The notes beneath the pieces were generated by a model, which was not told the DNA's origin, ran no database searches, and saw nothing but the letters and a program-made list of their open reading frames with translations. This document shows, piece by piece, positions 7,174 through 10,104 of a DNA stretch of 64,000 bases. This DNA is from Streptomyces lydicus (lineage in GTDB: Bacteria; Actinomycetota; Actinomycetes; Streptomycetales; Streptomycetaceae). Both the position numbers and the translations under genes were made by a program. The stretch lies in contig NZ_JNZA01000002.1 in the NCBI RefSeq assembly GCF_000717345.1, positions 257,701 through 321,700 on the forward strand, in the 5' to 3' direction. Position 1 is the stretch's first letter, and every line of letters starts with the position of its first letter.

Positions 7174-8583
7174 GTGACGATTGCCGACGAATCGCTGCCC
7201 GGTAGTGCGGAAGAATCCCAGAATTCCAGTCTGACTACCTCCGCCGCCCGGAATCTGGCGACCACCACCAAAACACCACCGCAGATGCAGGGAATCACTT
7301 CCCGCTGGCTGCTGCGGCTGCTCCCCTGGGTGCAGGTGTCCGGTGGCACCTATCGCGTGAACCGCCGGCTGACCTACACGCTCGGGGACGGGCGTATCGA
7401 CTTCGACATCAACGGCTCCGACGTCTCGATCATCCCCGAGGAGCTGCGCGAACTGCCCGCCCTGCGGGAATTCACCGACACCGAGGTGCTGGCGGCGCTC
7501 GGCCGGCGCTTCACCCAGCACGAGTACGGGCCCGGCGAGCTGATCGCCGAAGCGGGCGACGCGCACGACCGGCTGGTGCTGATCGCGCACGGCCGGGTGG
7601 ACCGCATCGGCACCGGCAAGTACGGCGAGAGCGCGGTGCTGGAGGCGCTGGCCGGGGGCGACCACCTCGGCGACGGGCCGCTCACCACCGCCGACGGGAC
7701 CTGGCAGTTCAGCTATCGCGCGGTGACCCGGGTGACGGTCCTCGTACTGGCCCGGTCGGCCGCGCAGGAGGTCATCGAGCGCTCCCCCGGGCTGGGCGAG
7801 CACCTGGCGTCGGCCGGGGAGGGCGCCGCGCTGCCGACGAACGACAGCGGGGAGTCGGCGGTCGCGGTCACCTCCGGGCACCACGGCGAGCCGTCCCTGC
7901 CCGGCACCTTCGTCGACTACGACCCGGCGCCCCGGGAGTACGAACTCAGCGTCGCCCAGACGGTGCTGCGTGCCCACAGCCGGGTCGGCGACCTCTACAG
8001 CGACCCGATGAACCAGGTCGAGGAACAGCTGAAGCTCACGATCCAGGCGCTGCGCGAGCGCCAGGAGCACGAGCTGGTCAACAACCGCGAGTTCGGGCTG
8101 CTGCACAACGCCGACCTCAAGCAGCGCATCCACACCCGCTCCGGACCGCCCACCCCCGACGACCTCGACGACCTGCTCGCGACGGTCTGGAAGGACCCGG
8201 GTTTCCTGCTCGCCCACCCGCAGACGATCGCCGCGATCGGCCGGGAATGCAGCGCCCGCGGCCTGTATCCGACGGCGGTCGATTTCATGGGGCATTCGCT
8301 GCCGTCCTGGCGTGGGGTGCCGATCTTCCCGTGCAACAAAATTCCGGTGTCGAAGGAGCGGACCAGCTCGATTTTGCTGTTGCGCACCGGCGAGGAAAAG
8401 CAGGGCGTGGTCGGCCTGCACCAGACCGGTATTCCCGATGAATACGAGCCGAGCCTGTCGGTGCGCTATATGGGCATCGACGACCGGGCCGTCCTCAAAT
8501 ATCTGGTGAGCGCCTACTATTCGGCGGCCATTCTCGTGCCCGACGCGGTCGGCGTCCTCGAAGACGTGCAGGTCGGCCACTGA
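7174..8583 (+). CDS. Family 2B encapsulin shell protein, copy 1 (HK97-fold with cNMP-binding-like insertion)
   Basis: 469 residues. The architecture is that of family 2B encapsulins: a flexible N-terminal arm (about 1-35), an HK97 phage-capsid-like shell fold, and a cyclic-nucleotide-binding-like domain inserted at about residues 97-215 ([20 protein letters not shown]...[17 protein letters not shown]). The rest of the shell fold follows ([60 protein letters not shown]). Such proteins self-assemble into icosahedral compartments that enclose an enzyme, in known actinobacterial cases terpene cyclases such as 2-methylisoborneol synthase, or polyprenyl transferases. The canonical phosphate-binding-cassette G-E is degenerate here (LGDGPL, about residues 165-170). 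GTG start behind AAGGAGAT. A second, very similar gene follows 105 bp later; no cargo gene is recognisable nearby. Confidence 0.9.
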
Positions 8584-8688
8584 GACGACGCGCGCCGAGC
8601 CGCGCGCAGCGGCAGGCCCTTCCGCGGTCCGGCCGCACCGCAAGCACGTCACGCACGCACCGCACCACAGAACAGGTGAGCCTTCTCC

Positions 8689-10104
8689 ATGACCACATCG
8701 GTGGACCCGACGTCCGGCCCGCAGTCCTCGGAGCCGGAGCAGCAGCGTTCCAGCCTGGACACCGCGGCCGCCCGCAAGCTGGCGACCACGACCAAGACCG
8801 TGCCGCAGATGCAGGGGATCTCCTCCCGCTGGCTGCTGCGCATCCTGCCCTGGACGCAGGTCTCCGGCGGTACCTTCCGCGTCAACCGCCGGCTCACGCA
8901 CACGCTCGGCGACGGCCGCATCGAATTCGTCTCCACGGGCACCGAAGTCCGGGTGATTCCCGCCGAGTTGCGTGAGCTGGCGCCGCTGCGCGGCTACGAC
9001 GACGCCGCGACACTGGAGAACCTGGCCGGCCGCTTCGTCCAGCGGGAGTTCGCGCCCGGTGACGTGCTGGCGCGGGCGGGCGGCCCCACGGACCGGGTCA
9101 TCCTGATCGCGCACGGCAAGCTGGACCGGATCGGCACCGGCAAGTACGGCGAGGAGACGTCCCTGGGGACGCTGGCCGACGGCGACGCCCTCGGCGAGGC
9201 GGCGCTGTTGTCCCCGGACGCGCAGTGGGAGCACTCCGTGCGGGCGGTCACCCGGGTGACCGCGCTGACCCTGTACCGCAGCGACTTCGAGTCGGTGGTG
9301 GCCGATTCGGCGTCGCTGCGCTCCCATGTCGAGGAGTTCCGCACGGCCGAGGTGCCGGCCCACAACAAGCACGGCGAGGCGGCCATCGAGCTCGCCGCGG
9401 GCCACGCCGGCGAGCCGGTGCTGCCGGGCACCTTCGCCGCCTACGACATGGCGCCCCGGGAGTACGAACTCAGCGTCGCGCAGACCGTGTTGAAGGTGCA
9501 CTCCCGGGTCGCGGACCTCTACAACGACCCGATGAACCAGCTGGACCAGCAGCTGCGGCTGACCGTGGAGGCGCTGCGCGAGCGCCAGGAGCACGAGCTG
9601 GTCAACAACCGCGAGTTCGGACTGCTGCACAACGCCGACCTCAAGCAGCGCCTCCACACCCGCTCCGGTCCGCCCACCCCGGACGACCTCGACGAGCTGA
9701 TCACCCGGCGCCGCAAGACGCAGTTCCTGCTGGCGCACCCGCGGACGATCGCGGCCATCGGGCGGGAGTGGAACGCCCGCGGCATCTACCCGAGCACCGT
9801 GGAGTGCGAGGGCACGGCGGTCCGGGCCTGGCGCGGCATTCCGCTGCTGCCGTGCAACAAGATCCCGATCAACCCGGACCAGACCAGCTCGATCCTCGCC
9901 ATGCGGGTCGGCGAGGAGAACCAGGGCGTGGTCGGGCTGCACCAGACCGGCATCCCGGACGAGTACCGGCCCGGACTGTCGGTGCGCTTCATGGGCATCA
10001 ACGACCAGGCCGTCATCAATTACCTGGTCAGCGCCTACTACTCGGCGGCGGTGCTGGTGCCGGACGCGCTGGGCATCCTGGAGGACGTCGAGATCGGCCA
10101 CTGA
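8689..10104 (+). CDS. Family 2B encapsulin shell protein, copy 2
   Basis: 471 residues, closely similar throughout to the product of 7174-8583: shared [55 protein letters not shown] and [11 protein letters not shown] blocks, with the same inserted cyclic-nucleotide-binding-like domain. In this copy the cassette motif reads [20 protein letters not shown], keeping the Gly-Glu and the downstream Arg that contact the ligand in authentic cNMP-binding domains, unlike copy 1. The two proteins could build a mixed shell. ATG start with a moderate ribosome site (CAGGTGAG). A structured terminator follows the gene, so the pair probably forms its own transcription unit. Confidence 0.9.

What the first reader, a model, noticed from the sequence alone, without database searches (positions are those of the whole stretch)
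7174..10104. Tandem family 2B encapsulin shell genes without an adjacent cargo gene
Two similar shell proteins (469 and 471 residues), each with a cyclic-nucleotide-binding-like insertion, form their own unit between a xylose regulator and a wall amidase. In the actinobacterial loci I know of, family 2B shells sit beside a terpene cyclase or polyprenyl transferase cargo; none is present here within about 3 kb on either side. Either cargo is encoded elsewhere, or the pair builds a mixed shell for an undescribed cargo.
Basis: partly seen in the sequence, partly recalled or inferred. Interest (0 to 1): 0.75.

Follow-up and report, generated by a model that had tools for sequence, protein, structure and literature searches.

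The report
Paired protein-shell genes beside xylose genes
These two neighbouring genes make the two shell proteins of an already described kind of bacterial protein compartment; the nearby xylose-kinase gene usually taken as its contents can be lost while the shell stays, and the enzyme that makes the earthy smell geosmin is a candidate worth testing instead.

Summary
The pair is real: 7174-8583 (469 aa) and 8689-10104 (471 aa) are family 2B encapsulin shells, 64% identical, orthologous to Streptomyces lydicus Sl-Enc1/Sl-Enc2, a published mixed two-component shell of the 'xylulose kinase' type (PMC12407261). The claim of no adjacent cargo gene fails by that classification: xylulokinase xylB lies 1.5 kb upstream. 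New member of a known kind.

New here is evidence on the open cargo question. XylB carries no loading extension. Pairs at the same chromosomal place persist in genomes without a clear xylB. In 28 of 35 related loci outside Streptomyces a geosmin synthase homolog lies with the shells. This genome's geosmin synthase is encoded elsewhere but ends in GLGTSAAR, a near copy of the shells' N-terminal motif. In 16 of 16 Streptomyces whose only family 2B shells found are such a pair, it keeps a GLGT-type tag, the full LGTxAAR in 10. Geosmin synthase as cargo in trans is a testable hypothesis, not shown; tags also occur without the pair, and tree-based tests had too few cases.

The parts
7174..8583 (+). 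enc1: family 2B encapsulin shell protein, first component (469 aa, GTG start); N-arm motif [16 protein letters not shown]; diagnostic motifs TVWK and [10 protein letters not shown]
8689..10104 (+). enc2: family 2B encapsulin shell protein, second component (471 aa); N-arm motif [16 protein letters not shown]; diagnostic motifs RRRK and [10 protein letters not shown]
7036..7073 (+). strongly conserved element upstream of enc1 (38-base core), inside a conserved block of about 90 bases; also present in loci without xylA or the ROK gene and in one without xylB; function unknown, perhaps the enc promoter region
   Evidence: alignment of 26 clade-A sequences; matrix scan
4216..5646 (+). xylB, xylulokinase (476 aa): published putative cargo of XK-type systems; FGGY domain starts at residue 10, no loading extension
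   Evidence: TIGR01312 452.7 bits, PF00370/PF02782
5727..7007 (+). ROK-family regulator, xylR-like (start codon judged from the sequence)
   Evidence: PF00480; Mlc/NagC-like NCBIfam matches below cut-off
2922..4085 (-). xylA, xylose isomerase, divergent from xylB (start judged from the sequence)
   Evidence: TIGR02631 722 bits, cut-off 447
1905..2870 (+). acetyl xylan esterase
   Evidence: PF05448 329 bits
10334..10990 (+). N-acetylmuramoyl-L-alanine amidase (neighbour, probably not part of the system)
   Evidence: PF01510

Best explanation
enc1 and enc2 encode the two subunits of a mixed, roughly T=1 protein shell of the XK-type two-component family 2B encapsulins (by homology to S. lydicus). 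XylB next door is a chromosomal neighbour rather than the obligate cargo. The likeliest cargo is geosmin synthase, encoded elsewhere in the genome and loaded in trans. Its linker (GLGTSATD) and C-terminal tail (GLGTSAAR) resemble the conserved L-x-T-x-A-A-R stretch of the shells' own N-terminal arm. The proposed mechanism is that the tag occupies the site which an N-arm segment would occupy, so that Enc1/Enc2 shells close around the enzyme and keep the hydrophobic substrate and the volatile product in one compartment. Shown by computation: family, orthology, motif presence, gene order, losses of xylB. Inferred from homology: mixed shell. Inferred, untested: that the tag binds these shells, and the role.
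For: Shell identity and orthology. Core of diagnostic motif 1 (VWK in Enc1, RRRK in Enc2) in 32 of 32 clade-A rows (two rows are one genome). Published co-assembly: PMC12407261. XylB not obligate: of 12 clade-C genomes searched (of 13 clade-C loci), 10 have no XylB match above 335.4 bits and 2 are borderline (370 with an internal stop; 378.1; cut-off 380.25); the genome of L026 (S. celluloflavus, clade A, pair kept) tops at 309.7. No extension on linked XylB, whereas the same genome's two other shells sit beside a terpene synthase and beside a cysteine-desulfurase-like enzyme with about 128 residues before its domain. enc1 keeps a conserved upstream block in loci with and without xylA and the ROK gene, and in L026 without xylB (26 sequences). 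Geosmin synthase: 28 of 35 loci outside Streptomyces (two-shell or single-shell) have a homolog of 48% identity or more in the locus (29 with one 32% match). Own geosmin synthase tag. Geosmin synthase tag G[LFI]GT in C-tail or linker: 27 of 27 rows from 26 pair-lineage genomes, C-terminal in 26; others 38 of 53, C-terminal 26. Full LGTxAAR in tail or linker: 20 of 27 against 6 of 53. 30 further named genomes: C-terminal tag in 28 by script, tag letters present but frame broken or running on in 2. Pair as the only family 2B shell found: 12 genomes and 4 more, 16 of 16 with a C-terminal G[LFI]GT; full LGTxAAR in 8 of the 12 and 2 of the 4. One of the 16, S. celluloflavus, has no clear XylB. LGTxAAR among 1087 called genes: shells (42, plus one shell fused by gene calling) and geosmin-type cyclases (11) only.
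Against: The tag is not specific to pair-bearing genomes (38 of 53 others by the loose pattern), and some of those have only other family 2B shells. Fisher tests ignore descent; the independent-pairs test on the tree has 3 informative pairs and gives a median p of 1 for the loose and strict tag definitions alike. The loose definition was set after I had seen the tails; the stricter pattern gives 17 of 27 against 8 of 53. In two clade-A genomes the better-matching geosmin synthase lies beside a different, single shell (G083 contig C25, G178 contig C9), with a second copy elsewhere. Two geosmin synthases beside a shell gene have no such C-tag (G049, G131a). The element upstream of enc1 was not found in the 18 kb around geosmin synthase, so co-regulation is not indicated. 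xylB stays 0.2-2.2 kb upstream of enc1 in 30 of 31 listed clade-A loci, in 15 of them without the ROK gene, which favours some link with XylB. The genome-wide L-x-T-x-A-A-R scan found 23 matches against 20 for the control pattern, so singling out geosmin synthase rests on position and reading frame, judged by eye. PMC6428758 (passage) says that EshA, the shell of the 2-MIB operon, is not required for making 2-MIB. No binding evidence exists.
Confidence: 0.4

Rival explanations
1. XylB is the cargo: the shell sequesters xylulokinase as part of xylose use, as the published class name suggests.
For: Published assignment: 124 XK systems, all with two shells (PMC8346489). xylB 0.2-2.2 kb upstream in 30 of 31 listed clade-A loci, including 15 listed loci without the ROK gene, 14 of which also lack xylA there. 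xylB 3.2-6.2 kb upstream in 5 of 5 clade-B loci.
Against: Shell pair kept where xylB is lost. No terminal extension compared with unlinked XylB. enc1 has its own conserved upstream block, in which the CAAACTAATATGCGGC element of the xylA-xylB gap was not seen (by inspection). PMC8346489 itself notes that XKs lack consistent disordered regions.
Confidence: 0.2
2. The cargo is another, unrecognised protein encoded in trans, neither XylB nor geosmin synthase.
For: No cargo has been determined for XK systems (PMC12407261). Only motif-based and known-family searches could be run here. The tag of geosmin synthase also occurs in genomes without the pair.
Against: A tagged geosmin synthase is present in every pair-bearing genome that I examined for it (26; 30, in two of which its frame is broken or runs on).
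Confidence: 0.3
3. The two genes build two separate homomeric shells, or one copy is idle.
For: The proteins are only 64% identical, and PMC8346489 left separate shells open.
Against: S. lydicus Enc1 alone does not form shells, and the two prefer mixing (PMC12407261). Both copies are present in all 32 clade-A rows. Against the nearest relative both differ more at synonymous than at non-synonymous codons: 26 vs 9 and 22 vs 15.
Confidence: 0.07
4. A xylulose-5-phosphate pathway compartment: XylB makes and phosphoketolase uses xylulose-5-phosphate, and either gene can lie beside such shells.
For: In clade D eight distinct loci carry a phosphoketolase gene convergent to enc2, and in two genomes a single Enc2-like shell has it about 75 bases away.
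Against: Convergent, so not one operon. In this genome phosphoketolase is on contig C31, not with the pair on C2. 128 of 150 genomes have it. Some clade-D loci lack it (L142, L262, L263).
Confidence: 0.05

Closest known systems
Streptomyces lydicus two-component family 2B encapsulin Sl-Enc1/Sl-Enc2 (XK type; PMC12407261; PDB 9bje and 9bix by their motifs)
   Same: Full-length orthologs (884.5 and 885.1 bits); same order Enc1 then Enc2; same diagnostic motif 1 (TVWK / RRRK); diagnostic motif 2 nearly the same in Enc1 ([10 protein letters not shown] vs AVDFHGHSLP)
   Different: Diagnostic motif 2 of Enc2 differs ([10 protein letters not shown] vs GAELHGTDVR). No experiment on this strain's proteins is known to me.
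XK-class family 2B operons of Giessen and Andreas 2021 (PMC8346489)
   Same: Streptomyces-type genome; two shell genes; xylB, xylose isomerase, regulator and acetylxylan esterase in the neighbourhood
   Different: No difference in gene content seen; the comparative data here question XylB as cargo
Family 2B loci with geosmin synthase-like cyclase (Actinopolyspora, Saccharopolyspora, Nonomuraea, cyanobacteria, Archangium)
   Same: Related shells with the same N-arm motif; the cyclase bears GPTGLGTSAAR-type tags
   Different: There the cyclase gene is between or near the shell genes; here it is encoded elsewhere
2-MIB synthase/EshA-type single family 2B shell (PDB 9bhu is such a shell by recall; its record says only nucleotide-binding protein)
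   Same: Same fold and family; the genome holds a shell beside a terpene synthase and a methyltransferase on contig C15
   Different: Single shell gene with adjacent cargo

Membership tests
Family 2B encapsulin shell protein | HK97/SrpI-like fold with a cNMP-binding-like domain inserted in the E-loop | tested here: met
   PF19307 and PF00027 in both; NF041163 over cut-off in both
Two-component family 2B system | two distinct shell genes within 10 kb | tested here: met
   105 bases apart, 64% identity
Two-component family 2B system | Enc1/Enc2 diagnostic motifs | tested here: met
   TVWK/RRRK and the luminal loop against the motifs quoted in PMC12407261
Two-component family 2B system | both proteins co-assemble in one shell | not testable with these tools
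   shown for the S. lydicus orthologs only (PMC12407261)
XK-type system | xylulokinase gene in the neighbourhood | tested here: met
   XylB at 4216-5646
XK-type system | xylulokinase is the encapsulated cargo | tested here: inconclusive
   putative in the literature; losses of xylB and absence of an extension speak against it, linkage in clade A speaks for it
Family 2B terpene-cyclase system | terpene cyclase gene beside the shells | tested here: not met
   none in the genes scanned around the pair; geosmin synthase is on contig C34
Family 2B terpene-cyclase system | cyclase carries the GPTGLGTSAAR-type tag | tested here: met
   GAPSGLGTSAAR at the C-terminus and GLGTSATD in the linker of the geosmin synthase encoded in trans

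The most novel reading that the evidence does not exclude
The 'xylulose kinase' two-component encapsulins of Streptomyces are misnamed. Their cargo is geosmin synthase supplied in trans, and the loading tag is a molecular copy of the shell's own N-terminal arm (L-G-T-x-A-A-R), so that cargo and N-arm compete for one site; having two shell proteins, of which only Enc1 orders its arm, sets how many sites stay free for cargo.
Probability: 0.35. Interest if true: 0.72.

Novelty: new member of a known kind. Interest (0 to 1): 0.5.

Why it matters
No native cargo is known for XK-type two-component encapsulins (PMC12407261, Discussion). The comparative evidence moves suspicion away from XylB and names one tagged enzyme, found in every pair-bearing Streptomyces genome examined for it here, that can be tested in one co-expression experiment. 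If the tag really copies the shell's N-arm, it would give a rule for finding family 2B cargo anywhere in a genome, and would place the last step of geosmin synthesis inside a protein compartment in streptomycetes whose geosmin synthase gene stands alone.

Tried and rejected
Exact GPTGLGT pattern in the own genome: one hit, judged antisense noise. Phosphoketolase as a common partner: linkage in clades D and E only, kept as a rival. NAGPA, LysX and a small membrane-type protein (F37) as cargo: recurrent neighbours but secreted- or membrane-type by annotation or appearance, judged chromosomal context (signal peptides were not tested). XylR operator at enc1: not seen; a different conserved block is there. 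Co-regulation of geosmin synthase with the pair: the enc1 element was not found around it. Tag-pair association as a statistical proof: rejected, because the independent-pairs test has too few informative pairs. I also compared the conserved block in my head with promoter and operator consensus sequences recalled from memory (sporulation sigma factor, BldD, AdpA) and saw no good match; no tool tested this.

Limits: gene calling was by a simple GC-frame script, which missed genes (for example xylB and the regulator in the window); synteny therefore rests on tblastn. The trees are FastTree and a quick IQ-TREE. Shell rows shorter than 400 residues and the loci L143, L146 and L148 were left out of the shell tree. 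Row G147 was left out of the tag counts and the geosmin synthase tree. G071 was counted in clade D from two adjacent shell places; its locus was not inspected. Several assemblies are drafts, so absence of xylB means absence from the assembly held. Some loci are the same genome (L028 and L146 = G083; L076 and L140 = G142; L048 and L261 = G117, judged from contig lengths).
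Full report
WHAT IS THERE. Two open frames, 7174-8583 and 8689-10104 on the + strand, encode proteins of 469 and 471 residues. Both match the Pfam SrpI-like shell domain and the cyclic-nucleotide-binding domain, and the NCBIfam equivalog for family 2B encapsulin shells well over its cut-off. They are 64% identical. By sequence their nearest solved relatives are 9bje for the first and 9bix for the second, each over essentially the full length. The two chains carry the motifs that Dutcher, Andreas and Giessen 2025 (PMC12407261; abstract, introduction, section 2.1, discussion, bioinformatic methods and some passages read) quote for Sl-Enc1 and Sl-Enc2 of S. 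lydicus; that these entries are those proteins is inferred from the motifs. The window proteins carry the same diagnostic motif 1 (TVWK in Enc1, RRRK in Enc2).

THE CARGO GENE THAT WAS OVERLOOKED. The frame 4216-5646 is xylulokinase (TIGR01312, 452.7 bits against a cut-off of 380.25). Xylose isomerase lies divergent at 2922-4085, a ROK regulator at 5727-7007 and an acetyl xylan esterase at 1905-2870. This is the gene content that Giessen and Andreas 2021 (PMC8346489, passages read) describe for their XK class: 124 Streptomyces systems, all with two shells and xylB, commonly with xylR, xylA and acetylxylan esterase. The window is a new member of that class.

COMPARISON ACROSS GENOMES. A scan of genome contigs with Enc1 kept the best 80 of 246 related stretches, and a search of 150 genomes of the window's genus found relatives of Enc1 at E 1e-60 in 148. 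Mapping neighbours and a tree of 186 shell rows separate these groups. Clade A is the XK type including the window. Clade B (5 loci) has xylB 3.2-6.2 kb upstream. Clade C (13 loci in the tree) shares a chromosomal setting with A and B (SNF2, F23, GDPD, NAGPA and LysX genes, as far as the contigs reach), has the pair next to NAGPA and, in 12 of 13, LysX downstream, but no xylB. Clade D has a phosphoketolase gene convergent to enc2 in eight distinct loci. Group E is two single Enc2-like shells beside phosphoketolase. Enc1 of A-D and Enc2 of A-E group with each other (local support 92, with one stray row, and 97), so the pair is probably older than its present neighbours.

IS XYLB THE CARGO? For: in clade A it lies 0.2-2.2 kb upstream of enc1 in 30 of 31 listed loci, including 15 listed loci without the ROK regulator gene (L028 and L146 are one genome). 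Against: in 12 clade-C genomes searched with the XylB model none passes the cut-off; 10 have nothing above 335.4 bits and two are borderline (370 with an internal stop, 378.1). The clade-A genome of locus L026 has kept the pair but its best match is 309.7 bits; a XylB-like paralog in the own genome scores 317.6. XylB linked to shells has no terminal extension compared with unlinked XylB, and its kinase domain starts at residue 10. In the same genome, the shell on contig C15 lies beside a terpene synthase and a methyltransferase, and the shell on C12 beside a class-V aminotransferase (cysteine-desulfurase type) whose domain starts at residue 129 of the called frame. enc1 has its own block of about 90 conserved bases upstream, kept in loci with and without xylA and the ROK gene and in L026 without xylB (26 clade-A sequences aligned; scan). 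The conserved element of the xylA-xylB gap was not seen in it (by inspection).

A CARGO IN TRANS? PMC8346489 names GPTGLGT(SAAR) in terpene cyclases as a possible targeting sequence. I noticed that it resembles the shells' own N-terminal arm: 185 of 192 shells carry L-x-T-x-A-A-R in their first 70 residues, 63 of them as LGTxAAR. Among 1087 genes called in the 80 loci and the first 21 kb of the window, LGTxAAR occurs only in shells and in geosmin-type cyclases (one further hit is a shell fused by the gene caller). G[LFI]GT in tail or linker is found in 20 of 21 geosmin-type cyclases of those loci, against 14 of 799 other proteins in their last 60 residues. A scan of the own genome for L-x-T-x-A-A-R in DNA gave 23 matches against 20 for the control pattern, which is chance level. 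Judged by eye, the best terminal, in-frame matches in coding-like frames are Enc1, Enc2 and one more; a F-I-T-A-A-A-R near the end of another frame (L166) and one in a 118-residue frame (L164) were set aside. The one more is a 745-residue two-domain cyclase on contig C34, called geosmin synthase here by resemblance to the family (no model scan was run on it), with GAPSGLGTSAAR at the C-terminus. No shell gene lies beside it (positions). In 28 of the 35 loci outside clades A-D, all outside Streptomyces by title, a homolog of it (48% identity or more) lies within the locus (29 with a 32% match; two loci without one, L065 and L066, are cut short by the contig); 6 of the 35 show one shell only. 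Among 45 clade A-D loci from the same scan none has it, and one of 20 further fetched loci does (L139). PMC12224551 (passages read) reports encapsulins in all geosmin clusters of myxobacteria.

TAG COUNTS. Geosmin synthase was found in 148 of 150 genomes. I read 81 sequences, from genomes chosen to include the pair bearers that I knew of and others in the order of the listing. G[LFI]GT in the C-tail or linker: 27 of 27 rows from 26 pair-lineage genomes (A-E, the two single-shell E genomes included) against 38 of 53 others, Fisher p=0.0016; at the C-terminus alone 26 of 27 against 26 of 53; one row, G147, was dropped. This loose pattern was set after I had seen the tails; the stricter one gives 17 of 27 against 8 of 53, and the full LGTxAAR in tail or linker 20 of 27 against 6 of 53. 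The tree-based test of independent pairs does not support an association under the definitions tried (3 informative pairs, median p=1). Among 30 further named genomes of clades A and C, 28 have the C-terminal tag by script, and in the other two the tag letters are present but the frame is broken or runs on. The more telling set is genomes in which the pair is the only family 2B shell found at E 1e-60: 12 unnamed and 4 named, 16 of 16 with a C-terminal G[LFI]GT, the full LGTxAAR in 8 and 2 of them. One of the four is S. celluloflavus, which has no XylB match above 309.7 bits. If the tag works at all in these genomes, the pair is the only family 2B shell found that it could serve. Whether it works is not shown.

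WHAT SPEAKS AGAINST. Tagged geosmin synthases occur in genomes without the pair. In two clade-A genomes (G083, G178) the better-matching geosmin synthase lies beside a different single shell, with a second copy elsewhere. Two shell-adjacent geosmin synthases lack the C-tag (G049, G131a). Geosmin synthase does not share the enc1 upstream element in the 18 kb fetched. PMC6428758 (passages) states that EshA, the shell encoded with the 2-MIB genes, is not required for 2-MIB synthesis. xylB's persistent position in clade A is unexplained by this reading.

LITERATURE. Paper searches for encapsulin with family 2B, two-component, 2-methylisoborneol, geosmin synthase, xylulose kinase, terpene cargo-loading, geosmin nanocompartment and EshA (listings, with passages of the papers named above) showed me no statement that geosmin synthase is cargo of XK pairs, or that the tag copies the N-arm. 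The library holds open-licence papers only, so this is not proof of absence; the paper on a family 2B shell that PMC12407261 cites as its reference 35 was not seen.

Noticed in passing
window 7013-7100: A block of about 90 bases upstream of enc1 is strongly conserved across clade A (core TTTCCATGCCACCCCATCGAGCGATTGTGCCGATAAAA, 7036-7073); in some relatives the centre is a palindrome such as CACTCGTTCGAGTG (L147). Its regulator is unknown.
   Followed up: partly
L037, L047, L049, L064, L076, L085, L087, L139; L149 and L150: Phosphoketolase genes lie convergent to family 2B shell genes in one Streptomyces group; a class not named among the operon types of PMC12407261 in the sections read.
   Followed up: partly
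L034, L036, L038, L040, L043, L044, L046, L057, L068, L070, L136-L138: In a second group, rich in verticillate Streptomyces by name, the shell pair stands after NAGPA and mostly before LysX with no known cargo gene in the locus.
   Followed up: partly
L139 (G086) 7329-12377: A clade-D pair with a geosmin-type cyclase (49% identity) between the two shell genes and a phosphoketolase gene after them.
   Followed up: no
G000 contig C12 (L006:7868-10808) and contig C15 (L005:7268-10774): The genome has two further single family 2B shells, one beside a cysteine-desulfurase-type enzyme with about 128 residues before its domain and one beside a terpene synthase and a methyltransferase.
   Followed up: partly
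xylA-xylB gap, window 4086-4215: A conserved element around CAAACTAATATGCGGC upstream of xylB, a possible operator; also present upstream of xylB in L017 and L145, where xylA and the ROK gene are not adjacent.
   Followed up: no
window about 25517-26899 and 27138-28550, - strand: Two further FGGY-type carbohydrate kinase frames (171.7 and 238.2 bits to TIGR01312, below cut-off, positions converted from contig C2).
   Followed up: no
G083 (contigs C25 and C3), G178 (contigs C9 and C20): Two clade-A genomes have two geosmin synthases each, one beside an additional single family 2B shell and one elsewhere.
   Followed up: no
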